NCBI RefSeq assembly: GCF_001467525.1
Contig: NZ_LNXS01000053.1
Location: 15,045-79,044 of the forward strand
Origin: Legionella anisa
GTDB taxonomy: Bacteria; Pseudomonadota; Gammaproteobacteria; Legionellales; Legionellaceae
DNA: 64,000 bases
Direction: 5' to 3'
Made by a program: the position numbers and the translations under genes. The notes under the pieces were generated by a model, which saw only the letters and a program-made list of their open reading frames with translations, did not search any database and had not been told where the DNA came from. This document shows positions 5,809 to 32,550 of this stretch, piece after piece. Position 1 is the first letter of the stretch. Each line of letters begins with the position of its first letter.

Positions 5809-5851
5809 TTTTAAAAGCTTAAGTTCATAACAAAAATAAAAGGAGCGCTCA

Positions 5852-6932: not shown

Positions 6933-6936
6933 TTTA

Positions 6937-8224: not shown

Positions 8225-8264
8225 ACCAGAAGCTGCTTAAAATGAGTTGGAAGGAGAGTAGGTA

Positions 8265-9951: not shown

Positions 9952-9979
9952 GCGCTGGCACGAATACAGGAGAGAAGCA

Positions 9980-12529: not shown

Positions 12530-12884
12530 TCGCTTAAACACCACATATTGGGTCATTGCAGGAGTTTGTGGGTTCATTGGAGTCCTGGCGGGTATGTTTA
12601 TGATGTGGCCTAAGCCGTTACCTCTTTTGGTGGTTGATATGAATCGTGCCATAGAGGCACCTTCGGTGCTGCTTGCCCGTTCTAAACTGACTCATGAAGA
12701 ACAATTAAACATTATGGATCGCTTTTCACGAGCCCTTCCAGAAGTCATCAAGGACTATGGAAGGTCTCACCGGGTAACCTTAGTCAGTGCACCTGTATTG
12801 ACTGGTTACAAACCCTCCCAAGTGGATGTAACAGACGAGCTCATTGCTTTGACCATAGCAAGGATAAAGCATGAAGCGCACTAA
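12519..12884 (+). CDS. trbI: TrbI-like inner-membrane protein
   Basis: This 121-residue protein starts at the ATG at 12519 after GAGGGG, inside the end of traC. It has one N-terminal membrane helix (YWVIAGVCGFIGVLAGMFM), then a periplasmic part with MNRAIEAPSVLLA, a motif shared by F-type TrbI proteins. F TrbI (128 residues) affects pilus extension and retraction. The order traC-trbI-traW is as in F. The end overlaps traW by 14 bases. Confidence 0.85.
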   Translation: MPFNRLNTTYWVIAGVCGFIGVLAGMFMMWPKPLPLLVVDMNRAIEAPSVLLARSKLTHEEQLNIMDRFSRALPEVIKDYGRSHRVTLVSAPVLTGYKPSQVDVTDELIALTIARIKHEAH

Positions 12885-14476: not shown

Positions 14477-14487
14477 GGAGGCCTTTA

Positions 14488-15153: not shown

Positions 15154-16957
15154 ATGCATGTTGGCCATCGTCTGTATTTTTGGATTTGGCACGTTCTCAG
15201 CTGCCAATACAACAGCGCAGGACTTTCAGAAATTAAAAGAATACGCAAAATCTTTGGGGAATCAGCCACTGAGCGCCATGAATGAATTTAAGCCCCAGAA
15301 TACCTTCAAAGACTATACGGAAAATCCCTCGCAATCGCTTCATTATCAGGGGGTTGAAACTGAAAAAACGGATTTAAGTACCTTGGCTGCGAATGCCTTA
15401 AAAAATGATGCCGGTGGACATACTGTGACCGAGCATTTTGGTCAGCGCCAGTTTGAAATCAATACTAAAAATGAAGCGATTAAAAACGCCAAATTAATTG
15501 AAGAAGAAAGTTATGCGATTACCCATGGACAATCTAATGAGCGGATTAAATGCGATGAAAAGCCACAGGCTTGTGAGATTAAGTCGCATGAGGAAATCTG
15601 TCATACATCAAGGCAATTACCAGAACAACAGTGTTTAAAAAAACGCAAAGTAACCGTGAACACAGAACGATGGAGTCAAAGAGCTGACTTTGAGGTATGG
15701 GTTCATAAAAAATGGACTGGACTCATAGCGGTTAATCTTATAACGGGTGCGATGACCAATAGCGCAGGAGGACATTTAACCAATCCTGTTAAATTAAATC
15801 ATCCCTGCGAGGAGATGAAAGCCACAGTACACTCCATTCTAAATAATGGTGGTTCTGCTCATTGGGTGCGTGTTGTGGGACTTCCAACCTGCCAGAATGG
15901 AGGAGTAATCACCCTGTATATTTCAGATAAGTTCAGTCGCTATTACCCAATTCAAGTGGCATTGACGATTAATGCTCATTCTAAATCCTATGTGGAAGAA
16001 GAGCACTGGGATAATGAATGCGCTGCTCTTGAGACAAACAACCTATGTCAAAAAACACAAGAGCAGTGTACTGATTCCAATCCAACCCGTGTCATTAATG
16101 GCCTGCCCGTCACCCGCGATTGCTGGGAGCTTAATGCACGATATCAATGCGCATCCGCTGCAGCTGATGAATGTAAAACGCAACGTGAAAAAGGATGCTT
16201 ACAGGCAAGCTCGCGCTGTACATTAATGAACAATAATGCCTGTTCACTCTATGAGCAGGTATATCGTTGCGATGAGACAGTCTGCCCACAGCCTGTGGCT
16301 TGTGTGCGTGATCTCTTTTGTGCCGATGGAGACTGCACGGAACATGCTGCGACTCAGAATGATGGTTTTGGAGAGGCCATGGCACCCATGGCCGTTGCAG
16401 GAGCTGCTGGCGCTGAGTTTGGTAAAACGCAGGCCACCTTATTTTCAGGCCATCCCGTTCAGTGCAAAATCTGGGTTTGGGACATTATTGATTGTTGTTC
16501 GAATGAAGGCTGGGCTGACAAACTCCATATCGATTTGTGTCGTGAAGAAGATAAGGCTTTAGGCAAAGCCAAACTCAATTATCTGGCTCATTACGTAGGC
16601 GAATTCTGCAGTCAGAAAGATCCCATTTTTGGCACCTGTCTGGAGCACAAACGCACCTATTGTGTCTTTGACAGCAAAATGGCGCGCATTATCCAGGCCG
16701 AAGGACGTTTAAGACAATTAAATCCCAATGCTTTAGGAGATGCGGAGCATACACGCTGCGCGGGGCTCAGTGTGAATGAATTACAAAGCCTTGACATGGG
16801 GCGCATCGATTTTTTAAACCCTGTCTATCCATTTCCCCAAGGACAACCAACAAAAGAAGCAGGAATTGTAGGCGATGTCGTTTTAAATAGCCCCGACGCT
16901 TCAAAAGCAATGGATGAAATCAAACGGCGAGTCCAGAAAAAGGCAGAACAAAAATGA
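15146..16957 (+). CDS. traN: TraN outer-membrane mating-pair stabilisation protein
   Basis: The 603-residue protein has a signal peptide (about residues 1-19) and a very high cysteine content, with clusters such as IKCDEKPQACEIKSHEEIC and CAALETNNLCQKTQEQC. TraN is the donor outer-membrane adhesin that contacts recipient outer-membrane proteins and stabilises mating pairs; its many disulfides fit with the TrbB- and TraF-like partners here. The length equals that of F TraN (602). Its variable receptor-contact region cannot be assigned to a recipient protein from sequence alone. Confidence 0.9.
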   Translation: MFRCMLAIVCIFGFGTFSAANTTAQDFQKLKEYAKSLGNQPLSAMNEFKPQNTFKDYTENPSQSLHYQGVETEKTDLSTLAANALKNDAGGHTVTEHFGQRQFEINTKNEAIKNAKLIEEESYAITHGQSNERIKCDEKPQACEIKSHEEICHTSRQLPEQQCLKKRKVTVNTERWSQRADFEVWVHKKWTGLIAVNLITGAMTNSAGGHLTNPVKLNHPCEEMKATVHSILNNGGSAHWVRVVGLPTCQNGGVITLYISDKFSRYYPIQVALTINAHSKSYVEEEHWDNECAALETNNLCQKTQEQCTDSNPTRVINGLPVTRDCWELNARYQCASAAADECKTQREKGCLQASSRCTLMNNNACSLYEQVYRCDETVCPQPVACVRDLFCADGDCTEHAATQNDGFGEAMAPMAVAGAAGAEFGKTQATLFSGHPVQCKIWVWDIIDCCSNEGWADKLHIDLCREEDKALGKAKLNYLAHYVGEFCSQKDPIFGTCLEHKRTYCVFDSKMARIIQAEGRLRQLNPNALGDAEHTRCAGLSVNELQSLDMGRIDFLNPVYPFPQGQPTKEAGIVGDVVLNSPDASKAMDEIKRRVQKKAEQK

Positions 16958-17736
16958 GATTATTTACTATTATTTTAATGTTACTTTCCATGCCGGCCAT
17001 GGCTGATTTAGTAAGTCCACCTGCTCATGGGTTTCATTGGTACAGTACAGAAAACAAAGAACCTCAGATGAAACCTGTTCAAATTCCAAAGGTGTCAAAG
17101 CCTGCGCTGACTCCATATGAAGAGCTCATGGAAGTCCGCAAAGCCACCATGAATAAGCTCGCAACGGCATTAATTGCCCCATCATTTGATGCAACCTATG
17201 AGTACATGAAAGCCCAGCAGGTGTATGCCAAAAACAATCAGAAATTTGTCCAGTACTGGCAACAGGTGCTGTTGTCTCATCCTGAGCTGGATCATTCCTT
17301 AAATTTTCCAACTGACAATACGGCTGTGGCCATTCGCAATGATTCAATGAATCTTTTAATGGAGAGGGTAGTCCGAGAAGGGGCTAAACGTTATGGATTA
17401 ATCCTTTTTTACAAAGGGAACAGTTCCATTTCGCAAAAATTCATCACTCATCTTGTGCCATTCGTCAATCAGACCCACTTTTCAATGATTTCGGTCACAA
17501 CAGATGGACAACCCATTGAAGGTTTGCCTAATCCTAAAAACATACCTCTTCATGAAATACAAAAAACAATGAATTTACAGTCACGCTACATGCCCGCACT
17601 GTTTCTTGTTGATTTAAAAACACAAAAAATGTCGCCTTTATCTTATGGTTTCGTCTCCACAACCGAGTTAAAAGAACGCCTGCTGGATGTGGCGACTCAT
17701 TACAAACGATACAGCTATGAGGGGTTTGAAGCATGA
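16954..17736 (+). CDS. traF: TraF periplasmic pilus assembly protein
   Basis: The 260-residue product begins at an ATGA overlap with traN. A signal peptide ends near AMA|DLVSPP, followed by GFHWYSTENKE, the typical WY-containing start of mature TraF. The C-terminal half has a thioredoxin-like fold (RYGLILFYKGNSS, MPALFLVDLK) without the CxxC pair, as in F TraF (247 residues), which is structurally thioredoxin-like but not itself a classic oxidoreductase. Confidence 0.9.
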   Translation: MRLFTIILMLLSMPAMADLVSPPAHGFHWYSTENKEPQMKPVQIPKVSKPALTPYEELMEVRKATMNKLATALIAPSFDATYEYMKAQQVYAKNNQKFVQYWQQVLLSHPELDHSLNFPTDNTAVAIRNDSMNLLMERVVREGAKRYGLILFYKGNSSISQKFITHLVPFVNQTHFSMISVTTDGQPIEGLPNPKNIPLHEIQKTMNLQSRYMPALFLVDLKTQKMSPLSYGFVSTTELKERLLDVATHYKRYSYEGFEA

Positions 17737-18227
17737 TTGTCCGCATCATTTTTTTACTGCTTTGTTCTGTAATTAATCCATTGCACGCCAATGTGGCAGT
17801 TGAAGAACTCAATGCACTGTTATTGAAAAAGCAAGCCCCTAAAGCTTTTGCACAGAAGGAATCAGCTGAAGCTAAAGATTTATCCCAAAATTATTATTTT
17901 GCATTTATTTATCGAAGCACCTGCCCACATTGTAAAAAATTCTCCCCTGTTTTAAAGGATTTTTCAGAAACATTCCATATTAAGGTTCGTGCTTTTAGCC
18001 TGGATGGAGAGTCCCTGGATGGACTCGATACCACACCATTAACACCTGAGCTTTTTCAAACATTCTATGTATCAGGAGGGTATAAGCCTACGGTTCCCGC
18101 CTTGTTTTTAGTCAATCGACATACCCTGGAGGCCTACGCTGTCTTGTTTGGAGAAGCAACTCCTTATCAGCTGGCACAAAGAGTACATGAATTAAAGCAA
18201 CACATTGAGGAGAAATTTAATGATTAG
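17733..18227 (+). CDS. trbB: TrbB-like thioredoxin-fold disulfide enzyme
   Basis: The 164-residue protein overlaps traF (ATGA), has a signal peptide (about residues 1-19, NPLHA|NVAV) and an active-site motif CPHC at residues 64-67 within FIYRSTCPHCKKFSP. CPHC is the DsbA-like active site; TrbB of F is a periplasmic disulfide isomerase that helps fold TraN, TraU and other cysteine-rich Tra proteins. It overlaps traH at the 3' end. Confidence 0.9.
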   Translation: MIVRIIFLLLCSVINPLHANVAVEELNALLLKKQAPKAFAQKESAEAKDLSQNYYFAFIYRSTCPHCKKFSPVLKDFSETFHIKVRAFSLDGESLDGLDTTPLTPELFQTFYVSGGYKPTVPALFLVNRHTLEAYAVLFGEATPYQLAQRVHELKQHIEEKFND

Positions 18228-19602
18228 AGCTCTTGTGCTAACCGTTGTTGCGTCTTTTACTTGCGTGACAGGAAATGGTGTTCATGCATCAGCCAGTGCC
18301 GATTTAAATCATTTTTTTAATAATCTTGGTTATTCTGCGAATGTCACGGGTAGCCATTCCTATGAATCACAGGCAGCAGGATTTGCATCATTAGGCTCTG
18401 TCTATGCCAGAAATCAGGTGCGTTCCATTCAGATAGCTCACGTTGATGTACCTGGGTTTCGCTCAGGATGTGGCGGAATTGATATTTTTGCAGGTGGTTT
18501 TTCCTTTATTAAATCAGAGCAGATTGTTTCCTTCATGCAGAATATTTTAAGTAACGGGGCAGGCTATGCAATGAACCTTGCACTGGAGACCGAGCTGCCT
18601 GAAATTGCTCATGCCATGCAATACATGCAAAAGCTGGCAAATGACATTAATGGGACAAATTTTAATTCGTGTGAGATGGGAGAAAACCTGACTGCAGCGC
18701 TTTATCCCAAAAATAGAGCGGCACATCAGCGTTTGTGTGAGGACATCGGGCGTAATCGTAATGTATACACCGATTGGGCAGAAGCCCGACATAAATGTTC
18801 GACAGGAGGGGAGATTGAAAAGCGATTGGAACAGGCAAAAAACGATTCAGAATATAAAGACAGGGCTCTTTTGAATACCAACGTAGTTTGGGATGCATTA
18901 CAACTGAATGAATTCATCAAATCAGATACAGAAATTTCAGAAGTCTATATGTCGATTTCAGGAACACTGGTATTTGATGCCAAAGGAGGGATGCAAACGT
19001 ATCCCTCTTTAGCGACTAATCAGGATTTTGTAAAAGCCTTGCTCTATGGAGGCAAATTACCCAGCTATAAGTGCACTGATTCAAACAAACCCATAAAATG
19101 TGTTGCCATCAATGTGAAAGGAAGCCAGGAGATCAGCAGCAAAGATGCTCTGGTTTCTCAGGTACAAGCCATCCTGCAGGGAGTTTATGAGAATATCAAA
19201 TCAGGGACGGCCTTAACGCCACAACAAAAAGGGTTAATTGAACTAACCCAGCCGTCTGTATTTCAGCTCATTTCAGCCAGTGCACAACAGAATATCGGCA
19301 TACAAAGCAGTTATGAACTTGCTCAGAGTGTAGCAACGGATTTGCTTGCCCAGTATCTTGCAAATTCACTTGAAGTGATTCGAGCATCCCTTGCAGGGCG
19401 TGATTTAGGTAGTGATCATGAAGAGAAATTATTTAAAAACCTGCAGGTAGCCCAACAATTTGTAGATAATTTTAATAGCGAATCACGAGCACGTTTTAAT
19501 GCCGCACTGACCACCAATCAATTGGTTCAAAACAACGTGAAGCAGGCGCTTAATGCCCTTAATCCCATCTTAAGAAAATCATATACCGGAGGGGCACAAT
19601 GA
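18220..19602 (+). CDS. traH: TraH pilus assembly protein
   Basis: Start at the ATG at 18220 after GAGGAG, giving 460 residues with a signal peptide ending near GVHA|SASA. The mature region contains GCGGIDIFAGGFSFI, a strongly conserved TraH segment, and C-terminal helices with coiled-coil character. TraH acts in the periplasm or outer membrane in pilus assembly. F TraH has 458 residues. The 3' end overlaps traG. Confidence 0.95.
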   Translation: MIRALVLTVVASFTCVTGNGVHASASADLNHFFNNLGYSANVTGSHSYESQAAGFASLGSVYARNQVRSIQIAHVDVPGFRSGCGGIDIFAGGFSFIKSEQIVSFMQNILSNGAGYAMNLALETELPEIAHAMQYMQKLANDINGTNFNSCEMGENLTAALYPKNRAAHQRLCEDIGRNRNVYTDWAEARHKCSTGGEIEKRLEQAKNDSEYKDRALLNTNVVWDALQLNEFIKSDTEISEVYMSISGTLVFDAKGGMQTYPSLATNQDFVKALLYGGKLPSYKCTDSNKPIKCVAINVKGSQEISSKDALVSQVQAILQGVYENIKSGTALTPQQKGLIELTQPSVFQLISASAQQNIGIQSSYELAQSVATDLLAQYLANSLEVIRASLAGRDLGSDHEEKLFKNLQVAQQFVDNFNSESRARFNAALTTNQLVQNNVKQALNALNPILRKSYTGGAQ

Positions 19603-22436
19603 GCCCATTATTAATCTACACCCCACAAAATGGGATTTATTTAAAAGAGTTGCTTGATGGTATGGCCGCTTTGCTTACTGAATCTACCTTTAGTACGGCG
19701 TGTGACATTATCATGATTCTATCCGTTGGTATGGTCGGTTATCAGTACGTGATGGGGAAAAAGCTCGAATCATTAACTCGCTTTGTGCTGACCACCTTTT
19801 TAGTCATGTATTGCGTGCTAGGCATTAAAGTGCCTGTGGCTATAATTGACATGCAGACAGCCGAAGGAGCAGGAGAGGCCTTAACAGTTGATCATGTGCC
19901 TTTAGGTGTTGCATTACCTGCAGCAGTCATTAGTGGCATGGGGTACGGAATAACAACTGCTTTTAGTGATGTATTTCACATGCCAGATAGCCTGGAGTAC
20001 AACAAAACCGGAATGATTTTTGGTGCAAGAACCTGGCTTGCGGCAACCCAGACAAGGCTCTCCATGTCGCCTGATTTGGCACAAGACCTATCGTCCTATA
20101 TCCGTCAATGCGTGTTTACGGCAAAACTTTTGGCAAGTCACCAATTAAGCCCTCAGGAGCTTACCCAAAGTGCTCATCTATCTAAAACCTATTTTGAGAG
20201 CCCATCGCCTATTTATCGGGTGATTCTGCACAATGGAGACAATTTAAGTTGTGCTGATGCAGCAGCCAATTTAAAAACTCGATTGCCCGTTGCAGCCAAA
20301 TTAGAGTTGGAGCGTCTTAATCATCTGGTAACCACAGGTGCTTTAGGATCACGCAACACGGACAGCAGTTCTTTACCAGGCGAAAAGACTTTTGGTGACC
20401 GGCTGCAAGCTGCTCACAAATATTACATGAACATTACCGAAGATGCGGCTGAAACACTTACGCAGAATATCTTAATTAATGCGACCCGAGATGCTGCTGC
20501 CGATGCTTTTGCTTTTTCAGGAGCTGATGCGGCACTCATGAATTACACCAATACGGACAGCACTCAAAAAATGCACATTGCCGAAGCCAATAGCTTTTGG
20601 CTTGCAGGATTTCGCCTGCCTTACTATATGACCGTGATGTGGATGCTAACGCTGTGTATTTTTCCATTAGTTGTTTTAATTTCATTTTTCCCGACCCTGA
20701 GTAACGCTTATTTCTTGTGGGTACAATCTCAAATCTACCTTTGGTCATGGCCGCCGATGTTTATTATTTTTCATTGGTTTGTTTCTATGGCCTCAAGTAC
20801 TACCATTACTTTGTTTGGTCAAAAAACCGGAGGTGTGACCTTCTCTAATATCGATTCATTAGCGAGCATGCACAGTAATTTCGCCTATACGGCAGGCGCA
20901 TTGGCGGCAAGTGTTCCTGTTATTGCCCTGTACATCACGAAAGGATTGGGACAGATTTTAAGTACCTCCTCCCAGCATTTTGGTGGTATGGCACAATCTT
21001 TGTCAGTCAGTGAAGCACAATCTGCAGCTGCAGGTAACATCTCAATGGCAAGTTACAGCGGTTGGAATATGAACTATGAAAATACCAGCGCCAATAATGT
21101 TTCGGCTAACAAGCACGATACCAATTGGACGAACATGCATGGGATGCACACGGAACAATTGGGAAGTGGAGTGCTTAAGACGACCACAGGCCATGGAGAT
21201 GCTGTTTTTGATGTAAGTCCTGGGATGTCACGAGGACCCGTACACATTTCAGATACAAAGGCCTTAAGTGGCTCTTTAAATCAGGCTTTTGAGGAATCCA
21301 GGCAGGCTGCAGCCAATGAAAGCCAGCATTATCAAACGTCCTTATCCAGTTTTGCGCACAGTGCCGTACAATTATCGAAAATGCAGGGACATGATATGCG
21401 TTTAGGCGATGGAGTATCTGAAAGCGAATCCGGTCAATACAGCCAGGCCTTATCGACCATGACGCATATTGCCTCGGATGTAGCTAAGCGCGAAGGGATA
21501 AGCCAAGAGGATGCGCTGGCTCATATGACCTCAGCTGGATTAAATGCCCACGTCGGAGTCGCAAGTGAAAAAAGTATGCTGGGAAGTATTGGGCGATTTG
21601 CTTTTGGAGCAACAGGAGGTGCTGATAGTCATGCCAAGTTCGATAGGTCATCAACGAGTAGTGATCGTTACCATGAGGGTACGGACAGCAGCATGTCAGC
21701 GAAGGAAGCAGAAGACTTTAATCAGGCGCTTAATTACGTGAGCCAGTTTGCACAAAACCATCATTTTGATAACAGCCATTCGGAAGGGGCAAGCCTTTCG
21801 AATCAAATGGGTACTGACTTGCGGGAAGCACAAACGGCAAGTCAAAACTACGATGCCTCGATGTCTAAAGCCGCTCGCATTAGCACGGCCAGGAGTTATG
21901 TGGAATCAAACTCCGATCAGATTACAACCGATCTTAATCAGGCATTTCCTGGCTTTGTGGCACACCGCATTGGAGAAAAGGCACGAGATGAATTGTATTC
22001 TAATCCTTCAGATCTGGCTTCATTAAAACAATTACAAATGCTAGCTAATGAGTTTATCAGTGAACAACGAGAAGGTTTAATCGCACGATACGGCAATGCT
22101 TCTAAAAATGCTCGGATTGACTCCTTTTATCAGGATGCAGCAAATCCATTAAGTACCAAAGAGTCACAAATGAGAGCGGACTACCACAAAAACAGTAATG
22201 CATTGGAGGATTCTGGAAGGACTCTGGGAGTTGGCATGGATGCATCAAGAGCCGAAAGCATGCAGCAAAAAATTAATAATCAGGTCGATGCGGCGGTAAA
22301 TAAAACAAGCAGTGGAGGAGGGCGTTTAAAGAGTCAATACCAGCAAGCGGTTGAAACAACGAACAACGATGTAGGCGAGGGGAAAAAACTGGGGCAAAGT
22401 AACGTCAACGCAGTTATACCTCGCCTATTTTACTAA
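19599..22436 (+). CDS. traG: TraG mating-pair stabilisation and pilus protein
   Basis: The 945-residue protein starts at an ATGA overlap with traH. The N-terminal part is membrane-bound, with hydrophobic segments near residues 35-75 and 340-460, and corresponds to the TraG_N domain needed for pilus assembly. The C-terminal half (about 470-945) is polar, rich in Ser, Ala, Gln and Asn, and predicted helical; in F this part stabilises mating pairs and interacts with the entry exclusion protein TraS. F TraG has 938 residues. The next gene stands at the traS position. Confidence 0.9.
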   Translation: MSPLLIYTPQNGIYLKELLDGMAALLTESTFSTACDIIMILSVGMVGYQYVMGKKLESLTRFVLTTFLVMYCVLGIKVPVAIIDMQTAEGAGEALTVDHVPLGVALPAAVISGMGYGITTAFSDVFHMPDSLEYNKTGMIFGARTWLAATQTRLSMSPDLAQDLSSYIRQCVFTAKLLASHQLSPQELTQSAHLSKTYFESPSPIYRVILHNGDNLSCADAAANLKTRLPVAAKLELERLNHLVTTGALGSRNTDSSSLPGEKTFGDRLQAAHKYYMNITEDAAETLTQNILINATRDAAADAFAFSGADAALMNYTNTDSTQKMHIAEANSFWLAGFRLPYYMTVMWMLTLCIFPLVVLISFFPTLSNAYFLWVQSQIYLWSWPPMFIIFHWFVSMASSTTITLFGQKTGGVTFSNIDSLASMHSNFAYTAGALAASVPVIALYITKGLGQILSTSSQHFGGMAQSLSVSEAQSAAAGNISMASYSGWNMNYENTSANNVSANKHDTNWTNMHGMHTEQLGSGVLKTTTGHGDAVFDVSPGMSRGPVHISDTKALSGSLNQAFEESRQAAANESQHYQTSLSSFAHSAVQLSKMQGHDMRLGDGVSESESGQYSQALSTMTHIASDVAKREGISQEDALAHMTSAGLNAHVGVASEKSMLGSIGRFAFGATGGADSHAKFDRSSTSSDRYHEGTDSSMSAKEAEDFNQALNYVSQFAQNHHFDNSHSEGASLSNQMGTDLREAQTASQNYDASMSKAARISTARSYVESNSDQITTDLNQAFPGFVAHRIGEKARDELYSNPSDLASLKQLQMLANEFISEQREGLIARYGNASKNARIDSFYQDAANPLSTKESQMRADYHKNSNALEDSGRTLGVGMDASRAESMQQKINNQVDAAVNKTSSGGGRLKSQYQQAVETTNNDVGEGKKLGQSNVNAVIPRLFY

Positions 22437-23196: not shown

Positions 23197-25050
23197 ATGC
23201 GCCATGAATCCAATTACAAACATTATACACGGGGCGGCCAGATCTCATTCCATAATCTGCGGATGTGGTTTCAGATTAACAAAGCGCTCTTTCATGTTTA
23301 CTTATTCATTTGGGCAGGGTTAAGCATTGTAATGACCTGTATCTTTGCGCCACATGGAATGATAAGACAGACTGTGTCCTATCATGCGGCTCATTTTTAT
23401 CACCTGGCAGGGGTGCCACATGTATTTTCTATCCCTGTTAAAGGGGGGTATGCATCACAAACTGTCGAACAGCTTCTCCACAATCACTATTTTTCTGCTA
23501 CCTCCGATCGTTTACTGACACTCCTGTTACAGTCAACTCTATGGAGTTTTCCCCTATCGTTGATTGTGGCACTTTTGGTGAGCCGATATTTCATTTATCG
23601 AGGAAAGGTACAAACACAAAACCAATTTATACGAGGGGCTAGTTTAGTCCCATCAGAAACACTTAAAAAACAGATCATAAAGCAAAGAAAAGCATCTGAT
23701 TTACATCTTGATGGATTTCCCCTGTTGCAAGGTGCAGAGGTGCAGCATTTATTGGTTCATGGCACGGTTGGGATGGGGAAAAGTCAGTTCATTATGAAAT
23801 TGATGGATTGTTTACGTGCACGAGGCGACCGAGTCATTGTCTATGACAAGGGATGCACGTTTACTCAGGCTTATTTTCAGGAAGATCATGATGTTTTACT
23901 TAATCCTTTTGATGCACGCTGTGCTAATTGGGATTTATGGCTGGAAGCCCCAAAAGATGAATTACTGGAAAACATGGCAGAAAGCCTCATCCCCATGCAT
24001 GGAGAAAACGATCCATTTTGGGTTAATGCAGCACGCACCGTGTTTGCCTGTCTTGCAAGTCAAATGCGTGAGGATAAGGAACGTTCCCTATCCAAGCTGT
24101 TAGGGTTACTGGTAACGGGCGAGTTTAGTGAGTTGGAACCTTATCTCAACGGCACGGCTGCAGCGACTTTGGTCAGTAATAAAATAGAAAAAACAGCCAT
24201 CTCCATTCGCTCCGTCATCACAACCTACCTTAAATCAATGCAGTCGTTAAGTGGGCTTGATGAATCTGGTAAGCCTTCCTTTTCCATTCGTGATTATCTG
24301 TTAAATAAAGATTTGGAGGGCTGGCTTTTTATATCAAGCAATGGGGAACAGCATAAATCTTTAAAACCATTGATTTCGATGTGGATTGCCATGGCATCCC
24401 TGACACTTTTGAGCTTGCCAGAAGATGCGAACAGGCGAATTTGGTTTATTTGTGATGAATTACCAAGCCTGCACAAATTACCCTTATTGGGTGAAACCAT
24501 TGCTGAAGTCAGGAAATTTGGCGGCTGTTTTCTGCTGGGAATGCAGAGCTTTAGTCAATTGGAGAAGGTATATGGGCGTAGTGGGGCGGCTGAAATTTTT
24601 GACTTGCTGAATACCCGAGCCTTTTTTGCAAGTCCAAGTCATGAAATGGCGCAACTTGTCAGTAAGGAACTTGGGGATGAGGAAATTGATGATACCCGAG
24701 AAAATTATTCTTATGGAGCTAACTCCATTCGTGATGGGATTTCCTTAGGAAAAAACCGTATTACACGACCCTTGGTGACTTATCCTGAAATTATGGGGCT
24801 TGATCCGCTTACTTGTTATCTGCGATTGCCAGGTCAATATCCTATAACAAAATTGGAGCTTCATTATCAAAAAAGAAGCGCGAAGGCTTCAGGTTTTCTA
24901 CCTCGTGCCATACCGTCTCTTCCTGTTTCTAATACCAGCATTAAACATGTGCCTGTTGTTAATGAGTCCTCAGACAGTCGCTTTAATGCGCAAGAGTCGA
25001 CTAATTCCAAGCGTTTCCAAGGTGAATACGAGATTGAATCTATTTTTTGA
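23197..25050 (+). CDS. traD: TraD type IV coupling protein
   Basis: The 617-residue protein has two N-terminal membrane helices (about 28-48 and 105-125), then an FtsK/VirD4-type motor domain with Walker A GTVGMGKS near residue 188 and Walker B IWFICDELP near 415. It docks the relaxosome to the secretion channel and pumps the T-strand. F TraD has 717 residues; the shorter C-terminus lacks the long TraM-binding tail repeat but still ends in a charged, low-complexity stretch. It lies 15 bases before traI. Confidence 0.95.
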   Translation: MRHESNYKHYTRGGQISFHNLRMWFQINKALFHVYLFIWAGLSIVMTCIFAPHGMIRQTVSYHAAHFYHLAGVPHVFSIPVKGGYASQTVEQLLHNHYFSATSDRLLTLLLQSTLWSFPLSLIVALLVSRYFIYRGKVQTQNQFIRGASLVPSETLKKQIIKQRKASDLHLDGFPLLQGAEVQHLLVHGTVGMGKSQFIMKLMDCLRARGDRVIVYDKGCTFTQAYFQEDHDVLLNPFDARCANWDLWLEAPKDELLENMAESLIPMHGENDPFWVNAARTVFACLASQMREDKERSLSKLLGLLVTGEFSELEPYLNGTAAATLVSNKIEKTAISIRSVITTYLKSMQSLSGLDESGKPSFSIRDYLLNKDLEGWLFISSNGEQHKSLKPLISMWIAMASLTLLSLPEDANRRIWFICDELPSLHKLPLLGETIAEVRKFGGCFLLGMQSFSQLEKVYGRSGAAEIFDLLNTRAFFASPSHEMAQLVSKELGDEEIDDTRENYSYGANSIRDGISLGKNRITRPLVTYPEIMGLDPLTCYLRLPGQYPITKLELHYQKRSAKASGFLPRAIPSLPVSNTSIKHVPVVNESSDSRFNAQESTNSKRFQGEYEIESIF

Positions 25051-25064: not shown

Positions 25065-28000
25065 ATGTTAAGTCTGCGAGTTAAACCGATTAAAATGCCA
25101 GGTTATTATTTTGATAAGGAAAATTATTACTTTTCAAATCAATTGACCACCGAATGGGTGGGGTTAAGTGCTGAGCGACAAAACCTTTCTGGAGAGGTTA
25201 ACGTACTATCCCTTGAGGCCGTTGTTCGTGGTGCATTACCGAGCGGCGATGTCATTGGCCTCAAAACCCAATCCGGCGAAATCAAGCATCGTGGCGGATA
25301 TGATCTGACCTTCTCCGCGCCTAAATCGGTGTCCTATCTTGGTTTGGTTTGTGGCCATAAAGAGTTTATTGATTTGCATTTAAATGCCGTAAAAACGGTA
25401 TTAAAACTCATTGAGAAGGAAGCTGCCGAAGCACGCAAATCAGGAAAAGAGGGTATGGAGTATGAAAAGACTGGCAATCTGTGTTTTGCGACCATCCTCC
25501 ATGACACCTCCCGAGAGCTTGATCCTCAGCTCCATGTGCATGCACTTTTGATGAATTTTACTGAACGTCTTGATGGCAAGTGGCGTGCTTTAGCCTCTGA
25601 TATCAGTCGTAATCACGGCACTATGGAATGGATTATGGACAACCAAATCTTTTTAGGGCTTGTGTACCGGTCTGAAATTGCTCTTGGTTTAAAAGAAATG
25701 GGGCTCGAAATAGAACATACAGGCGATGCCCATGGTTTATTTGAAATCAAACATTTTGATAAGACATTGCTGGAACGAATGTCTAAACGCCGTACCCAGG
25801 TTGAAGAACACATTAAAGGGATGCACTCAAATTCGTTAAAAGCATATGACAGAGCAACTCTGGATTCAAGAAAGTCAAAGGAAGTGGTTTCCCCAGAGGA
25901 ATTACGCATGCGATGGAAAGCAGAAAGTGAAGCGCTGGGAGTAAATCCTGCCACCTATCTGGCCACTTTAAAGGATAAAACCAAAGAATCGCATACGCCT
26001 AAAGAAGCCATGTCCAATAATCAAGAACTCGATAGAAGTGTTCTTGATGCAATTGCGCATTTAGAAGAGAAAAAACTTACATTTACCTATCAGGAAGTGT
26101 TACAGACAAGTCTCTATTTTTCCTTAGGTGAACAGGGCTTTGAAGCGCTGATGTCACGGATTGATCAAGAAATTGATGCACAAAATCTGATTGCTCTTAA
26201 TGCAGAAAACTCCTCTTTTACAACGAGTAAGCTCATTAACAAAGAACAAGAGCTCATAAAAAAAATCGTGAACTTCACACACCAAAAAAAAGGCATCGAA
26301 CGAAATATGGATAAAGTGTGCAAACTCACCGATAATGAGTCCATTCAAAAGGCAGTAACTCAAGCCTTATTTAATAAAGATGGAGTTGTACGCATCAAGC
26401 AGCAAAGCGCTACCTCGCGTGAGCTTTTAAGTACTTTAATTGATTATTCACAGGATTCCAAAATAATTCGTATCCTTTGTCCCTCTGCTTTTTCTGCCAA
26501 TACAATCAATAAGGATATGGCCAAATCAGCGCCTACACTGTGGCAATGGATTTTATCTATTGGGAAACAGGATTTGTGTGAAACAGTAGCAGGCTTTAAT
26601 TATCGTCATGGTTCAGAACATAAATTGCCCTTTTTTCATAGTAAAAAGGAGCGCGAAGTACTGATTGTGGATGAAGCACAGCGCCTGGCTCCTGACGAGA
26701 TGAATACTTTATTATCTATTGCCGATAAGCGATGTGCCAAGGTCATTTTTCTGGAAAAATCACAATCTCTGTCTGGCTTTAAATCCGATATTCCCGACTT
26801 GCTTGATAAAGCCTGTATAAAATCATTTGAGGTTGATGACAGAAAGGTGCCGGCCACCAGCATCAATCTTATAGAAGCCCAAACCGTTGAGGGACGTATT
26901 CTTAAAACAGCGCAAATGTACTGTAACTTGCCAGTAATCCAGAGGCAAAATACAAAAGTCTTTACTGTCTCAAAGCTCGAAGCTAAAGAAGTCAATGAAG
27001 CAATCCGTACTCAGTTAAAAGAGCAGGGAGAGATTTCATCAGATGAAAAGACTATAAATACATTAACCCGTATTCCCTTGACCCTCAGTGAAAAAAAACT
27101 GGCTAAAAGTTATCAGTCCAATTGGATATTAATCCATAACACCCGTACGGAATCAAAAAAATTCACGGTACTCGGTATTAATGAAAAAGACAATCAATTG
27201 ATTGTTCGTAATTCCAATGGGGCAAGATCACTACTTGCTGCTAAAAATATTACAGATTCCATGCAGATTTATGAACAAACACCTTTATCGGTAGGAATCG
27301 GGGATCAATTAGTGGCCACTGCCAGTTTATCCTTTGAAGGATTAAAAATAGGAAACCAATATGAGGTTACTGCATTTACCCGACATGGAATAAAAATAAG
27401 AGATGGGAAAAGAAGCATTCATCTTATCACGAGTAACGAAAAGCATTTCCCATTGAGCCATGCCTATGCCAAAACCATGTATTCCGATGATCTTAAACCC
27501 GTGAAACAAACCATTATGACACTGCCAGCCTATGCGCTCAAACAAAATACCATGTCGCTTTTATGCGAATCCAGTAAAGAAAACGTAATGATTATTACGG
27601 ATAATGTGGACAAGGCAAATCGATTTGCCATGAAAAGTGCGACAAAATCCTCCGCGATATCGCTGACTTTGGATGCCGCCAAAACAAATCATGGTGCACA
27701 GATTATTGACCATAGAACCACGAGTGATCTACTCAGTTCACTAGAGCAGGCCTTAACCCTATTAACCGCTAAAAAACCCCAAAAAAGTGATGCGGAAAAA
27801 GCGCTGCACTTTGCAATTGCTCACCTTTCAGAACGAGAGGCAGCCTTTACTCGATCAGATTTACTTGAAGTGGCCGTTCATCAGGCTATTGGAAAAGCAG
27901 GTCTTAATGAAATAGATAACGTCCTGGGTAATGCCATAAACAGTGGCGACTTAATATCTGGAGGGAACGAGTTTTTGACCACCAAAGAAGCGGTGGCATT

Positions 28001-30899
28001 TGAAGAATCGATTATAAAGAATGTTAAAGCGGGTATTAACATTCTTAAGCCATTGATGAGCAGTGATGAAGCGCAAAAACAACTAGAACTGACAGATCTT
28101 ACCAAAGGCCAAAAAGAAGCTTGTGAGTTAATCACGACTACATCCGATCAGTTTATTATGATTCAGGGGTATGCAGGAACTGGAAAAACAACCATGACTC
28201 GCAGTGCTATTGATACCATCAAGCATGCCCAATCAATGACTCATGAAGAGGTTGAACTAATTGCGGTTGCGCCCACTCACCAGGCTGTAAAAGAAATGAG
28301 GGCTCTGGGAATTGAAGCCCAAACATTAAAGAGTTTCCTTATTGAACAAGAACAGGAATCGACATTAAGCAAAAAAACACTTGTTCTTATCGATGAATCA
28401 TCCATGGTCTCTAATCGAGATTGCGCAAACCTCATGCAAAAAATTCATCATTCTGGCGCTCGTTGTGCAATGCTTGGCGATATTAGCCAACATCAAAGTA
28501 TTGAAAGCGGTAAGCCAAGTAAGATATTAATTCAAGAGGGAAGCATCAGGGTGGCCTGTATGGATGATTTGGTAAGACAACAAGTTATCGAATACAAAAA
28601 AGCAATCGAAACATTAATCGCCGGTGATATTGACAAGGCCTTAGCTCAGTTAGCCAATCAACCCTTAGACTCAATCACCCGCACTAAAGCGGATAGTCCT
28701 TACCATAGCATTACCTCTTCAATTATTGAAACAGGCGATTCGACCAAAGACTACCTGCAACTGGAAAACACACAACAGCAATCAATAGATCCATTCCAGG
28801 AAGAATTAAAGCAAAAGAACCCCATCGAAATGGCTGTAGGAGATTATTTATCTCGTACACCATCATGCCGTGATAACACGATTGTTATCATTCATGAAAA
28901 TAAAAAACGGGAAGTTGCAAATGGTTTGATAAGAGATGCCCTTATGAAAGAATCTACTTTAGGCTCCGAAAACAAAGAATTTCCGAGACTGTTAAGCACT
29001 AATTACACTACTGCAGAGCTTTATTATTGCGAAACATATCGGGATTGCTTAAAAAAGCAAGAGGAGTATTTTTTAAAGAAAGCGGAGCACTATTTCAAAG
29101 TGGTTTCAGTAGATGAATCAGCGAAAGTGGTAGTATTAAACGATGCGAAAGGAAATAAATGCCTCTTTGTTCCTGAAAAAGAAAATAAAGACTGGAAAAT
29201 TGAATTGTTTCAATCGATGCCAGGAAGGGTTTCAGTTGGTGAAAAAATTCATTTTAAAAAATCCGATAAGACTCTAGGTCGATTCGCTAATGAAAGGGTA
29301 CAGGTGACGGCGGTAAATAATGAGTCATTTACCGTAAAAGACAGTAGTGGTGTGGAACACGTGCTGCAAAAAAAATTGATGAGCGACTCCCATTGGGATT
29401 ATAGTTATACGGCTACCAGCTATTCAATTCAAGGAGCTTCATCCCCATTTGTTATTGGGGTTGCTGAGACTAAAAATGCGCAAGTAAATCACCTGCGGTC
29501 GTTTTATATTATGGTAACGCGAGGCTCCTTGCAGGCAATGATTTATACAGACGATCATAAAAAGCTGCAAAAACAACTTCGCGTTACTCCTGAGAAAACT
29601 TCTGCATTGGAATCACTTAACCATCTGAATGTCCAAACAAAGCCCCCAATACCCAATGCACCATCAACATCACTCAAAGCAGCGCAAAGAATGCCCATAA
29701 TGAAGAACCAGGAGCCTCGTTATGATGCGAATATGCTGTCACAACACTTATCCGAGCAGGCAGAGCTGGTAATAGAATCATTGCTAGGGCAGCCTAATCA
29801 AGCGCTTTCTTCCAAAACAGAATATCGATATGGTACTCACGGCAGCTTAAGCCTCTGTTTAAGCGGAGAAAAAAGAGGAGTTTGGCATAACTTTGAAACA
29901 CAAGAAAAAGGAAACATGCTTCATTTGATCCAAAAAACATTGAATCTAAATTTTAAAGAAAGCCTTGAATATGCCGCCAAATTAACAGGTGATGACCTAA
30001 AGGAACGTATTAAAATAGCAAACAAAAACCCCAATAATTTTCAAGTGAAAGACACTGATAAGAAAAGAAAAACATCAGATTATGGTTTGCAATTGGTGCG
30101 AGAATCCAAACCTATATCAGGCACTATAGCAGAAAGGTATTTAAAAGAAATTAGAAAGATACATAATGTATCTGGGGAAAATATTCGATTTCATCCTAAT
30201 GTCTATACCAAAGATACTGAGGAAGTACGCTACAGGCCAGCACTGTTAAATATTGCACGAGACAAAGACAATAAAGTGGCCTGCGTTGAAGTGGTATACC
30301 TGGATAATGAAACAGCAAATAAAGCAATAATGAAGATAAAACCCAAGAAATCTTATGGCTCAAAAGCAGGCGTTGGCGTCGTTTTAAGCGAGGGTAAAGG
30401 ACATGAAAGTGTCACCTACATTACAGAAGGGGTGGAAACCGGATTAAGCGTTAGAGATGCAGTTCAAAATGAACGGGTTATAGCGACTCTTGGGAAAGAA
30501 AATTTTGTAAATATCGATATGGCATTACTTACAGATAAAATAGTCATTTGTATGGATAATGATGGCAAATCAATTAAAGAAGATAAGGTAATCATTCAAA
30601 CCATTGAACGATTAAAACAGCATGGAAAAACTGTAGAAATTGCCATTCCGTTACATCAAAAAGACTTTAATGATGTGAATAAAAGCAGTGGGGTTCAAGG
30701 AGTGGTAGATATATTAAATAAAGCAACGAATGTCGATAAATTTATTGGCTGCCCTAATAAAATAGATATGAATCAAGATCAAATTAAGAAGTGTCTTGAG
30801 AGCATTTCTCGACAAATGAATCTCGAACTTCCTGAAAATAAAAATAATCCAATTGAGAAACTGAAAACCCTGCAGCGAGGAGAAATGGAAATATATTAA
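25065..30899 (+). CDS. traI: TraI relaxase-helicase with C-terminal primase/TOPRIM domain
   Basis: The 1944-residue protein starts with the TrwC/TraI relaxase domain: paired tyrosines Y14-Y15 and Y21-Y22, and the metal-binding histidines in ILHDTSREL and QLHVHALL. A degenerate first RecD-like helicase follows (VLIVDEAQRL near 533), then an active one with Walker A GYAGTGKTT near 1034 and Walker B LVLIDESSM. From about 1580 it departs from F TraI: GVWHNFETQEKGNMLHLI, then TYITEGVETGLSV near 1785 and IVICMDNDGKS near 1826 form a DNA-primase/TOPRIM module. It should nick oriT, stay bound to the 5' end, unwind the strand, and may prime synthesis in the recipient. F TraI has 1756 residues and lacks this tail. 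Confidence 0.9.
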   Translation: MLSLRVKPIKMPGYYFDKENYYFSNQLTTEWVGLSAERQNLSGEVNVLSLEAVVRGALPSGDVIGLKTQSGEIKHRGGYDLTFSAPKSVSYLGLVCGHKEFIDLHLNAVKTVLKLIEKEAAEARKSGKEGMEYEKTGNLCFATILHDTSRELDPQLHVHALLMNFTERLDGKWRALASDISRNHGTMEWIMDNQIFLGLVYRSEIALGLKEMGLEIEHTGDAHGLFEIKHFDKTLLERMSKRRTQVEEHIKGMHSNSLKAYDRATLDSRKSKEVVSPEELRMRWKAESEALGVNPATYLATLKDKTKESHTPKEAMSNNQELDRSVLDAIAHLEEKKLTFTYQEVLQTSLYFSLGEQGFEALMSRIDQEIDAQNLIALNAENSSFTTSKLINKEQELIKKIVNFTHQKKGIERNMDKVCKLTDNESIQKAVTQALFNKDGVVRIKQQSATSRELLSTLIDYSQDSKIIRILCPSAFSANTINKDMAKSAPTLWQWILSIGKQDLCETVAGFNYRHGSEHKLPFFHSKKEREVLIVDEAQRLAPDEMNTLLSIADKRCAKVIFLEKSQSLSGFKSDIPDLLDKACIKSFEVDDRKVPATSINLIEAQTVEGRILKTAQMYCNLPVIQRQNTKVFTVSKLEAKEVNEAIRTQLKEQGEISSDEKTINTLTRIPLTLSEKKLAKSYQSNWILIHNTRTESKKFTVLGINEKDNQLIVRNSNGARSLLAAKNITDSMQIYEQTPLSVGIGDQLVATASLSFEGLKIGNQYEVTAFTRHGIKIRDGKRSIHLITSNEKHFPLSHAYAKTMYSDDLKPVKQTIMTLPAYALKQNTMSLLCESSKENVMIITDNVDKANRFAMKSATKSSAISLTLDAAKTNHGAQIIDHRTTSDLLSSLEQALTLLTAKKPQKSDAEKALHFAIAHLSEREAAFTRSDLLEVAVHQAIGKAGLNEIDNVLGNAINSGDLISGGNEFLTTKEAVAFEESIIKNVKAGINILKPLMSSDEAQKQLELTDLTKGQKEACELITTTSDQFIMIQGYAGTGKTTMTRSAIDTIKHAQSMTHEEVELIAVAPTHQAVKEMRALGIEAQTLKSFLIEQEQESTLSKKTLVLIDESSMVSNRDCANLMQKIHHSGARCAMLGDISQHQSIESGKPSKILIQEGSIRVACMDDLVRQQVIEYKKAIETLIAGDIDKALAQLANQPLDSITRTKADSPYHSITSSIIETGDSTKDYLQLENTQQQSIDPFQEELKQKNPIEMAVGDYLSRTPSCRDNTIVIIHENKKREVANGLIRDALMKESTLGSENKEFPRLLSTNYTTAELYYCETYRDCLKKQEEYFLKKAEHYFKVVSVDESAKVVVLNDAKGNKCLFVPEKENKDWKIELFQSMPGRVSVGEKIHFKKSDKTLGRFANERVQVTAVNNESFTVKDSSGVEHVLQKKLMSDSHWDYSYTATSYSIQGASSPFVIGVAETKNAQVNHLRSFYIMVTRGSLQAMIYTDDHKKLQKQLRVTPEKTSALESLNHLNVQTKPPIPNAPSTSLKAAQRMPIMKNQEPRYDANMLSQHLSEQAELVIESLLGQPNQALSSKTEYRYGTHGSLSLCLSGEKRGVWHNFETQEKGNMLHLIQKTLNLNFKESLEYAAKLTGDDLKERIKIANKNPNNFQVKDTDKKRKTSDYGLQLVRESKPISGTIAERYLKEIRKIHNVSGENIRFHPNVYTKDTEEVRYRPALLNIARDKDNKVACVEVVYLDNETANKAIMKIKPKKSYGSKAGVGVVLSEGKGHESVTYITEGVETGLSVRDAVQNERVIATLGKENFVNIDMALLTDKIVICMDNDGKSIKEDKVIIQTIERLKQHGKTVEIAIPLHQKDFNDVNKSSGVQGVVDILNKATNVDKFIGCPNKIDMNQDQIKKCLESISRQMNLELPENKNNPIEKLKTLQRGEMEIY

Positions 30900-31419: not shown

Positions 31420-31788
31420 TTAATTATTGATATATCCTTCAATGAAATTATCTACTTTCTTCTTAAGTTCTGCGATATGTTCTTCGGCATTATTTGATTC
31501 ACCTGAAAGTTTATTTTTATCATAAACACAGCGAAAAATATCAGCACTTATTCCCAGTAATCTTAAAAGATGAGTCGTGTGTTGACGATTCAATTCCTCC
31601 TCTTTTTCTAAGCGTCTTTTTTCATCTTCGCTGATTACTGGATTATCTTTATTGTGTAGGTATACCTTAATTCCTAATTCGATCATTTCTTTCATGGTTT
31701 GGGATGATGAATCATGTCCTTCATCTTTTTTAATTGTTTCGAGCTGATCAATGATTCTTTGATTTAGATAACAATAAGCCTTGGGCAT
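31420..31788 (-). CDS. traM: TraM-like relaxosome DNA-binding protein
   Basis: The ATG at 31788 follows AGAGGA and gives 122 residues; an upstream in-frame ATG at 31827 has no ribosome site. The N-terminus MPKAYCYLNQRIIDQLETI and MKEMIELGIKVY match the ribbon-helix-helix region of F TraM, and LLRLLGISADIF plus the final helix HIAELKKKVDNFIEGYI match its tetramerisation domain. F TraM has 127 residues. TraM binds sites in oriT, stimulates TraI nicking, and contacts the TraD tail. It lies between traI and the predicted nick, facing traI. Identification is by residue pattern, size and position. Confidence 0.75.
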   Translation of the reverse strand: MPKAYCYLNQRIIDQLETIKKDEGHDSSSQTMKEMIELGIKVYLHNKDNPVISEDEKRRLEKEEELNRQHTTHLLRLLGISADIFRCVYDKNKLSGESNNAEEHIAELKKKVDNFIEGYINN

Positions 31789-31827: not shown

Positions 31828-32247
31828 TGTTTTTACCTGGTTTAGAATAATTGTATCATTTAATAATGGGTGTCGAATAGGTGTGTATATTCGTTCAATA
31901 GATATTTTTTACTCATTCAATAGGTGTGGATTAGGTGTTGATATTTTATAACTTATTGATTATTATTAAAGAGTGGATGCACACCTATATAAAATAGGGG
32001 TGTTAGCAGATCTTAAAATGCCAATCCGCACGTAAGCTACTGAATAATAATAAAATGTTTTAAGCAATAAACATTGCGAGGGGTGTGTTCTTTTTTATTT
32101 GGTTTTGCTTTTTTTGTGTGTGTTTCACTGGCCATTTTAGTATAGTTTATTTAAATTAATATTTTGGGAAGCGCATAATAATTGCGTACTTGTGATTCAC
32201 GGATTCTCTTATCTATAATCGTGTCACTGAACAGGGATATTTATATC
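31828..32247. promoter_or_regulatory. origin of transfer region (oriT), F-like
   Basis: This gene-free 420 bases holds five TAGGTGTG-like boxes: 31876-31885, 31919-31928, 31930-31939, an inverted copy at 31980-31987 and a variant ATAGGGGTGT at 31994-32003. To their right is a hairpin GCAAT-AAAC-ATTGC at 32064-32077 joined directly to GAGGGGTGTG, the same layout as the F oriT (inverted repeat followed by GTGGGGTGTG). The boxes are probable TraM sites, as the TraM-like gene lies next to them. The region also must hold promoters for traM (leftward) and for the first leading-region gene (rightward). I see no other structure right of 32100. Confidence 0.75.
32078..32090 (+). other. nic: predicted nic site of TraI
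   Basis: The plus strand reads TTGCGAGGGGTGTG at 32074-32087. F nic is TTGCGTGGGGTGT/GG, cut after the final T, so the cut here is predicted between 32086 and 32087. The TraI-bound 5' end would then be at 32087 and transfer would run rightward, with the tra genes entering last, as in F. The match is 13 of 14 bases around the cut; bases 3' of the cut (TTC for GTG) differ. Confidence 0.7.
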
Positions 32248-32550
32248 ATGGGCATATTAAAAAAAATTCTGAAAAAAATTGCTAAAATCATTCATTTTCG
32301 ACCATATAGCGAATGGACTGAAAATGAAAAAGCAAAGTATGCTAAACAGAATTCTTTTCGTTCTTGCTCCAAATCAAATAATACAGAAATTAATCCTGCT
32401 ACAGGATTACCAATGATTGGAGCTTTAGACAGCATGGGAAATTCTTTTGGTTCCAGTGCATCCGATAGAGACAATTATTGGAATAATGATTATCATCATT
32501 ATTCAACGTACAATAGCAGCAATTATGATCCATTTAACAATCGTTATTAA
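32248..32550 (+). CDS. leading-region protein of unknown function
   Basis: A 100-residue protein is predicted from the ATG at 32248. It begins with an amphipathic basic helix (MGILKKILKKIAKII) and ends with an unusual Asn-, Tyr- and Ser-rich tail (DNYWNNDYHHYSTYNSS). Such tails are often disordered. It is the first gene to the right of the predicted nick, so it would enter a recipient first. I recognise no family; membrane or nucleic-acid contact through the basic helix is conceivable. Confidence 0.5.
   Translation: MGILKKILKKIAKIIHFRPYSEWTENEKAKYAKQNSFRSCSKSNNTEINPATGLPMIGALDSMGNSFGSSASDRDNYWNNDYHHYSTYNSSNYDPFNNRY

What the first reader, a model, noticed from the sequence alone, without database searches (positions are those of the whole stretch)
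32061..32100. F-like nic site and hairpin in a Legionella-type element
The hairpin GCAAT-AAAC-ATTGC leads straight into GAGGGGTGTG, the same layout as the F plasmid nic (inverted repeat, then GTGGGGTGTG). It lies where an oriT should be: beyond traI and a TraM-like gene. The match around the cut is 13 of 14 bases. The divergence just 3' of the cut (TTC for GTG) makes a shifted relaxase specificity plausible.
Basis: partly seen in the sequence, partly recalled or inferred. Interest (0 to 1): 0.75.

Follow-up and report, generated by a model that had tools for sequence, protein, structure and literature searches.

The report
F-like transfer origin on Legionella plasmid
The sequence looks like the spot where a Legionella plasmid is cut to start its transfer to another cell, built on the plan of the classic F plasmid's start site; comparing relatives suggests which two amino acids of the cutting enzyme read which two bases.

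Summary
Hairpin GCAAT-AAAC-ATTGC (32064-32077) runs into GAGGGGTGT|G (predicted cut 32086/32087), 13 of 14 bases as in F, about 300 nt upstream of a TraM-like gene behind traD-traI of an F-type operon on a plasmid. In 143 Legionellaceae genomes the exact 14-mer occurs 26 times, each time beside a TraM-like gene. Relatives show compensatory hairpin changes, 11-bp-phased RGGTGT repeats and, in 21 of 29, an IHF consensus. I call it the nic/oriT of a MOBF/MPF_F plasmid; nicking is not shown. "Shifted specificity" from bases 3' of the cut is not supported: they vary among relatives, and the window's TraI has F's Q193/R201. The core difference from F is A for T at -8. Across 76 relaxase-nic pairs (duplicates included; 49 clusters) residue 193 tracks base -7 and residue 201 base -5. 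Side finds: an element about 85 nt 3' of the nick (43 of 56 Legionellales sites), and in the same genome an island without MOBF relaxase but with an oriT-like site. Bench tests with Legionella parts are referred.

The parts
32064..32077 (+). inverted repeat (hairpin) GCAAT-AAAC-ATTGC, arm ends 9 nt before the predicted cut
   Evidence: sequence; compensatory changes in relatives: GCCAT/ATGGC, GCAG/CTGC, GCAAC/GTTGC
32078..32087 (+). nic core GAGGGGTGT|G; predicted cut between 32086 and 32087, 5' end leading to the right
   Evidence: 13/14 match to F incl. arm; 26 of 26 genomic copies of the 14-mer beside a TraM-like match; cut position by homology with F, not shown experimentally
31420..31788 (-). 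TraM-like relaxosome protein, 122 aa
   Evidence: Pfam Tra_M E 4.6e-5, 23.9 bits, below cut-off 27.7; profile of 11 relatives hits pED208 TraM 3on0, E 0.0032; match in 33 of 143 Legionellaceae genomes
31868..31884 (+). repeat pair RGGTGT (31868-31873, 31879-31884), 11 bp apart; candidate TraM-like binding sites
   Evidence: at least one 11-bp-spaced pair in 29 of 29 distinct oriT sequences given; binding inferred
31922..31938 (+). second RGGTGT pair (31922-31927, 31933-31938), 54 bp from the first
   Evidence: both members at -165/-154 or -166/-155 in 21 of 29
31949..31961 (-). IHF consensus (WATCAANNNNTTR, recalled, on the - strand)
   Evidence: at -138/-139 from the cut in 21 of 29, with the N4 varying; absent in 8; 4.6% of shuffles of the window stretch have one anywhere
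31981..31986 (-). inverted copy of the repeat (ACACCT on +)
   Evidence: present in part of the relatives
31998..32003 (+). further GGGTGT copy
   Evidence: present in part of the relatives
32171..32197 (+). leading-edge element GCGCATAATAATTGCGTACTTGTGATT, 84 nt 3' of the cut
   Evidence: up to 3 substitutions allowed, 43 of 56 distinct Legionellales nic sites, 0 of 16 from outside, 0.05 expected from letter shuffles; function unknown
25065..30899 (+). traI, MOBF relaxase-helicase, 1944 aa, with C-terminal DUF7146/Toprim_3
   Evidence: TIGR02760 1197.6 bits over cut-off 929.85; TrwC E 6.4e-68; Q193/R201 as in F
23197..25050 (+). traD coupling protein; C-terminus ...EYEIESIF
   Evidence: TIGR02759 755.5 bits over cut-off 521.35; tail
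4579..22436 (+). 13 recognised F-type mating genes (TraT, TraA, TraL, TraK, TrbI/TraB-like, TraC, TraU, TrbC, TraN, TraF, second TraF-like, TraH, TraG); TraE, TraV, TraW not recognised, not every ORF scanned
   Evidence: Pfam and NCBIfam hits; TraL 24.0 bits just under its cut-off 24.4; NCBIfam TraG 598.1 just under 600, Pfam TraG_N well over
32248..32550 (+). first gene of the leading side, TraS-like C-terminal domain
   Evidence: Pfam TraS E 2e-7, 31.2 bits over cut-off 27.4; no NCBIfam hit

Best explanation
32064-32087 is the nic site of the plasmid's own oriT (about 31789-32200). Shown by sequence: an F-type operon with a MOBF relaxase, a TraM-like gene, and beside it a hairpin 9 nt 5' of GGGTGT|G conserved with its surroundings. 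Inferred: IHF and the TraM-like protein bind the phased sites and bend and open the DNA; TraI's N-terminal domain binds the hairpin arm and the 9-nt single strand, its tyrosine cuts between 32086 and 32087 and stays on the 5' end; TraM-TraD docking brings the complex to the F-type channel; the + strand from 32087 rightwards (leading side) enters first and the tra genes last; TraI rejoins the ends at the same site in the recipient. Specificity is of F type at the two positions where F and R100 differ (G at -7, G at -5), which residues 193 and 201 most likely read.
For: Motif, hairpin and spacing; same 9-nt arm-to-cut spacing in the F, R100 and R388 records; relaxase, coupling protein and mating genes; all 26 genomic copies of the 14-mer beside TraM-like matches, reversed control 1; 36 of the 39 TraM-like places have this or a variant nic; compensatory arms; phased repeats and IHF consensus; DUF932 gene on the leading side as in F; traM-to-cut distance about 300 nt, about 320 in F; residue-base covariation, with the sites of L117 and L120 found after their relaxase residues had been read.
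Against: No nicking or transfer data. The TraM-like protein is under the curated cut-offs, its model is poor and the fold search found nothing. No TraY or TraJ hit among 29 window proteins scanned with Pfam. The hairpin's energy is ordinary. Arm pair 5 is open in 4 of 16 distinct hairpins and pair 2 in one. One relative has C at +1 (L034); one has A at -7 with Q193 (G054). Of the 39 TraM-like places, L030 (broken gene) shows no nic, L042 ends 94 nt upstream of the gene, and a fragment in G050:C1 was not looked at.
Confidence: 0.93

Rival explanations
1. The stretch is oriT, but the cut is at another base, or the GGGTGT there is mainly one more accessory-protein repeat (the upstream array consists of RGGTGT copies).
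For: Same hexamer in the array.
Against: This copy has the hairpin, the 9-nt spacing and the near-invariant GCGAGGGGTGTG; its bases -7 and -5 follow relaxase residues 193/201 across relatives.
Confidence: 0.05
2. A decayed oriT or a regulatory site (operator/terminator) between divergent genes that only resembles nic.
For: It lies between divergently read genes (31788 and 32248).
Against: Identical region on four named plasmids; TraM-like matches in 12 of 33 genus labels and the exact 14-mer in 7; compensatory arms; open relaxase, coupling protein and mating genes.
Confidence: 0.02
3. Shifted relaxase specificity because of the bases just 3' of the cut.
For: +2 to +4 differ from F.
Against: These positions vary among relatives with like relaxases; PMC4176350 and PMC12117103 place recognition 5' of the cut plus 1-2 nt; Q193/R201 are F's.
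Confidence: 0.05

Closest known systems
F plasmid oriT (NC_002483) and TraI/TraM
   Same: hairpin, 9-nt spacing, GGGTGT|G, TraM gene about 300 nt away on the hairpin side, orientation, relaxase-helicase of the same family, Q193/R201
   Different: A for T at -8; 5-bp instead of 8-bp arms; oriT lies behind traD-traI with the TraM-like gene reading backwards; RGGTGT repeat array instead of F's sbm/sby sites; no TraY/TraJ found; leading-edge element not found in F; TraI 26% identical to F over 1687 columns, with Toprim C-terminus
R100 oriT (NC_002134)
   Same: same layout of hairpin and cut
   Different: nic GTAGTGTGT and R193/Q201; the window follows F, not R100
R388 oriT/TrwC
   Same: hairpin with 4-nt loop, 9 nt to the cut, purine at +1
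   Different: nic GTATTGTCT|A, TrwC T/N at the positions of 193/201; MPF_T
pED208 TraM (3on0)
   Same: best PDB profile match of the TraM-like protein
   Different: weak, E 0.0032, profile positions 1-76 only
Piscirickettsia salmonis plasmid (NZ_CP039077)
   Same: traD, traI, then reverse-strand small genes and a hairpin + GTGATGTGT|A in the next intergenic stretch
   Different: Q193/N201, T at -5

Membership tests
MOBF (TraI/TrwC) conjugative relaxase | relaxase domain, double tyrosine, HUH | tested here: met
   TIGR02760 and TrwC above cut-offs; YY and H157/H159 aligned with F
F-type (MPF_F) transfer system | F-type pilus and mating-pair genes with TraD | tested here: met
   13 mating genes, TraD, TraI recognised; TraE, TraV, TraW not recognised; MOB-suite types the plasmid with the identical stretch conjugative, MOBF, MPF_F
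F-like oriT | inverted repeat 9 nt 5' of a G-rich GTGT|G cut site | tested here: met
F-like oriT | cut by TraI at that base | not testable with these tools
   needs nick mapping; referred
F-like oriT | IHF site near nic | tested here: inconclusive
   consensus at -138 in 21 of 29, within the repeat array and farther from nic than F's IHFa (about +43 in PMC12117103, passages); binding not shown
F-like oriT | TraM gene and TraM-bound repeats | tested here: inconclusive
   TraM-like under cut-offs, PDB profile E 0.0032; repeats present, binding not shown
F-like oriT | TraY and its sites | tested here: inconclusive
   no TraY among 29 window proteins scanned; other and shorter ORFs not scanned
iOriT (oriT-only integrative element; PMC11389934, passages) for the island at G000:C54 | integrase, oriT, no relaxase, no mating system | tested here: inconclusive
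   integrases, AbiEi-like cargo, nic-like site and leading-edge block; no MOBF relaxase on this contig and none among the 10 of 17 ORFs of L286 scanned; other relaxase families not searched; excision and transfer not shown

The most novel reading that the evidence does not exclude
In TraI-type relaxases nic specificity can largely be read from two residues: position 193 (F numbering) sets base -7 (Q:G, K:C/T, R/N/I/V/H:A) and position 201 sets base -5 (R:G; M/N/E/T:T). The window's plasmid and the chromosomal F-type element of the same genome (H193, GAAAGGTGT) would then not serve each other's oriT, and relaxase-less islands in Legionella carry oriT copies of the second type and ride on such elements, which would give a route for Legionella islands that transfer without a known relaxase (PMC3864950, passages).
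Probability: 0.6. Interest if true: 0.7.

Novelty: new variant of a known kind. Interest (0 to 1): 0.52.

Why it matters
It places the transfer start of a plasmid family whose oriT is identical in several Legionella species, which gives the predicted cut strand, transfer direction and leading genes. The residue-base table turns the single F/R100 comparison into a rule that can be tested across wild relaxases and used to guess which relaxase serves which oriT, including sites with no relaxase nearby. The tra region of such plasmids is known (PMC2824747, passages); the rows listed by my searches of the held library showed no paper describing this oriT or such a table. Only the top rows of each search were seen and most subscription papers are not held, so this is weak.

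Tried and rejected
Residue 18 as reader of base -8 (top column): rejected, the N-terminal alignment is shifted there. Columns 177 (base -8) and 250-255 (base -6) score high but may only follow clades; left as leads. Base -5 has only 2 close pairs that differ and 201 is not the top column there, so its support rests on distant clades and on the F/R100 work. Hairpin energy as evidence: rejected. AlphaFold model of the TraM-like protein (mean pLDDT 67.5, pTM 0.30) and fold search: uninformative. Hairpin pairing inside the leading-edge block: inconclusive, arms were not parsed reliably. Loose nic pattern in 143 genomes: 44 places, 31 beside TraM-like matches, 13 elsewhere (reversed control 5 places); four of the 13 were looked at (L125-L128) and lie in or opposite long reading frames; nine were not looked at. 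Loose pattern in the own genome: 11 places, reversed control 1; eight were not looked at.

Rows and limits of the covariation: of 80 relaxase loci 30 had a strict candidate, 32 candidates against a mean of 2.2 in 10 shuffled sets. For L200 and L203, with two candidates each, I kept the one downstream of traI on its strand. L137, L144 and L205 came in through a looser scan, whose off-pattern hits were dropped. G015's nic (L041) and TraI lie on different contigs and were not paired. Main-clade nic sites were found with a motif that favours GAGGGGTGT, so those rows are less independent. The 76 pairs contain the same element fetched twice (for example L083 and L133). Test loci: 39 fetched (L211-L249), 38 with a relaxase, 21 with a candidate, 17 without. 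Of the 21, L225 and L216 have the same relaxase as first-set loci L196 and L153, and the nic sites of L230 and L236 had been seen; 17 were new, most of them relatives of first-set clades. Against a strict rule: A193 goes with T in L175 but with A in L287 (after the table was made).

Full report
What is there. The window is part of a 157 kb contig of a Legionellaceae genome. The stretch 31792-32247 is 100% identical on plasmids of L. sainthelensi, L. longbeachae (two) and L. anisa, and 82.7% (all of it), 78.0% (67% of it) and 86.5% (16% of it) identical on three more Legionella plasmids. Left of it lie F-type mating genes, traD and traI, reading right, then a small unknown gene, then a TraM-like gene reading left. 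Right of it, on the leading side, a TraS-like gene and further on a DUF932 gene follow; F also has a DUF932 gene on its leading side.

The site. GCAAT-AAAC-ATTGC then GAGGGGTGT|G at 32064-32087. F reads GCAAAAAC-TT-GTTTTTGC GTGGGGTGT|G, R100 the same arms and GTAGTGTGT|G, R388 a hairpin and GTATTGTCT|A (cut position from PMC4176350). In all, the arm ends 9 nt before the cut. In F and here the hairpin is on the traM side and the cut strand runs away from traM.

More than chance. TraM-like matches occur in 33 of 143 Legionellaceae genomes, 39 places. The exact 14-mer occurs at 26 places in 25 genomes, all beside those matches; reversed control 1. In all 36 of 39 places have it or a variant (GACGGG, GATGGG, GAAGGG, GTGGTG and others); L030 (broken gene) has none, L042 ends too early, one fragment was not looked at. 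Arms change in step: pair 3 A-T to C-G, pair 4 A-T to G-C, pair 5 T-A to C-G; but among 16 distinct hairpins pair 5 is open in 4 and pair 2 in 1. Of 29 distinct oriT sequences given, all have at least one pair of RGGTGT repeats 11 bp apart, 21 have the pair at -165/-154 (or one base off), and 21 have an IHF consensus at -138/-139. These relatives are close, so they are not 29 independent cases.

Specificity. Passages in PMC3245843 name F TraI E153D/Q193R/R201Q, after Harley and Schildbach 2003, as lowering affinity for the F/R1 nic; PMC7826260 says a double mutant switched F TraI to R100's target; that the two are 193 and 201 is recall (the 2003 paper is not held). In the records F has Q193/R201 with G at -7 and -5, R100 R193/Q201 with A and T; the window has F's pair and F's bases. 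I aligned relaxase domains with their nic sites. In 76 pairs, duplicates included: Q193 with G at -7 in 46 of 47; K with C or T in 10 of 10; R, N, I, V, H with A in 18 of 18; A with T in 1; R201 with G at -5 in 57 of 57; M, N, E, T with T in 16 of 16; Q with T or A (1 each), H with G (1). With one representative per 90% cluster (49): Q:G 26 of 26, K:C/T 9 of 9, R/N/I/V/H:A 13 of 13, A:T 1; R:G 38 of 38, M/N/E/T:T 9 of 9, Q:A 1, H:G 1. Among 248 columns (249 at 60%), 193 ranks first for -7 and 201 first for -5 at 90%, 75% and 60% clustering (49, 27 and 16 clusters) (all). Among 235 pairs 50-97% identical, 193 again ranks first for -7 (phi 0.62; 46 pairs differ at both, 24 at the residue only, 12 at the base only); -5 has 2 differing pairs only. 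Co-switches among relatives: F/R100 (92% identical), the window against L090 (61%), and three pairs of MAG contigs labelled Alphaproteobacteria, Defluviicoccus, Binatia or Deltaproteobacteria (68-80%), which need not be independent of one another.

Test. Rules were written down and then tried on new loci. Leaving out four of 21 that were not new (see Tried and rejected): Q gives G 8 of 8, V/I gives A 5 of 5, M gives a non-G at -5 7 of 7, R gives G 9 of 9; H (A, 4 of 4) and T201 (T, 1 of 1) had no rule. Later, L287 (A193/R201) gave A at -7 and G at -5: the R201 rule holds, A193 has no fixed partner. R388's TrwC (T, N; A at -7, T at -5) fits at -5; T193 had no rule.

Second system in the same genome. 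The chromosomal TraI (H193/R201) has the same relaxase sequence as G110's, whose site lies 11.6 kb downstream; GCAAC-CA-GTTGC GAAAGGTGT|G was then found at that distance, at G000:C1:227303. The two systems of this genome thus differ at -7 and -6.

Leading-edge element. A block like GCGCA-N4-AATTGCG-N3-TTGTGATT lies 73-90 nt 3' of the nick in 43 of 56 distinct Legionellales sites, 0 of 16 from outside, 0.05 expected from letter shuffles. By nic type: GAGGGG 23 of 24, GAAGGG 1 of 2, GTGGTG 8 of 12, GAAAGG 9 of 11, GATAGG and GTAAGG 1 of 1 each; GACGGG 0 of 3, GATGGG 0 of 1, GACAGG 0 of 1. Its role is open; I think a single-strand priming or promoter site in the recipient most likely (about 0.4, inference), a protein site next.

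Orphan sites. Searching for this element gave 21 places in 18 of 143 genomes, reversed control 0: 15 are oriTs of the window's type, G036 and G082 have a MOBF relaxase on the contig, and four have none on the contig or near: G000:C54, G058:C20, G002:C72 (18 kb contig) and G054:C1 (core altered; nearest relaxase 1.3 Mb away). Nic GCGAAAGGTGT plus block together: 6 places in 6 of 143, reversed control 0, two of them (G002, G058) without relaxase on the contig. At G000:C54 a GAAAGGTGT|G site with a 4-bp hairpin lies between two integrase genes, with AbiEi-like and other cargo. This fits an oriT-only island as defined in PMC11389934 (passages). Only MOBF relaxases were searched. PMC3864950 (passages) reports Legionella islands without a recognised relaxase or oriT, transfer of one of which was shown; whether these are the same islands was not tested.

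Verdict. The oriT is a new variant of the F-like kind: same nic logic, other layout, other accessory array, an added leading-edge element. Not shown: nicking, protein binding, transfer.

Noticed in passing
G000:C54:7750-7885 (L264, L286): Island between two integrase genes, without MOBF relaxase, carries GCAT-9nt-ATGC GAAAGGTGT|G and the leading-edge block, with AbiEi-like cargo: candidate oriT-only mobile island.
   Followed up: partly
G000:C1:227303-227324: Predicted nic of a second, chromosomal F-type element of the same genome (GAAAGGTGT), whose TraI has H193/R201.
   Followed up: partly
window 32171-32197: Element conserved 73-90 nt 3' of the nick in most but not all nic types of Legionellales; function unknown.
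   Followed up: partly
L288 (G058:C20), - strand: A second nic-like site (GTAAGGTGT) with a block-like sequence 73 nt downstream, besides the + strand one.
   Followed up: no
window 32248-32550: Leading-side gene with a TraS (entry exclusion) C-terminal match over the Pfam cut-off.
   Followed up: no
window 30078-30692 (traI C-terminus): TraI ends in DUF7146 plus Toprim_3, primase-like; the BLAST alignment with F's TraI stops before it, while the NCBIfam TraI model spans it.
   Followed up: no
window 37006-39504: Helicase matching PADLOC defence candidate PDC-S28 over nearly its whole length, 1093 bits.
   Followed up: no
window 24970-25050 (traD C-terminus): TraD tails of four Legionella plasmids are acidic and end in Phe or Phe-Gln, like F's DDF end; a role in TraM docking is recalled.
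   Followed up: no
relaxase alignment columns 177 and 250-255 (F numbering): Associate with bases -8 and -6, possibly only by clade.
   Followed up: no
G054:C2 (L019, L081): Only exception among 47 to Q193 with G at -7: GAAGGGTGT with Q193/R201.
   Followed up: no
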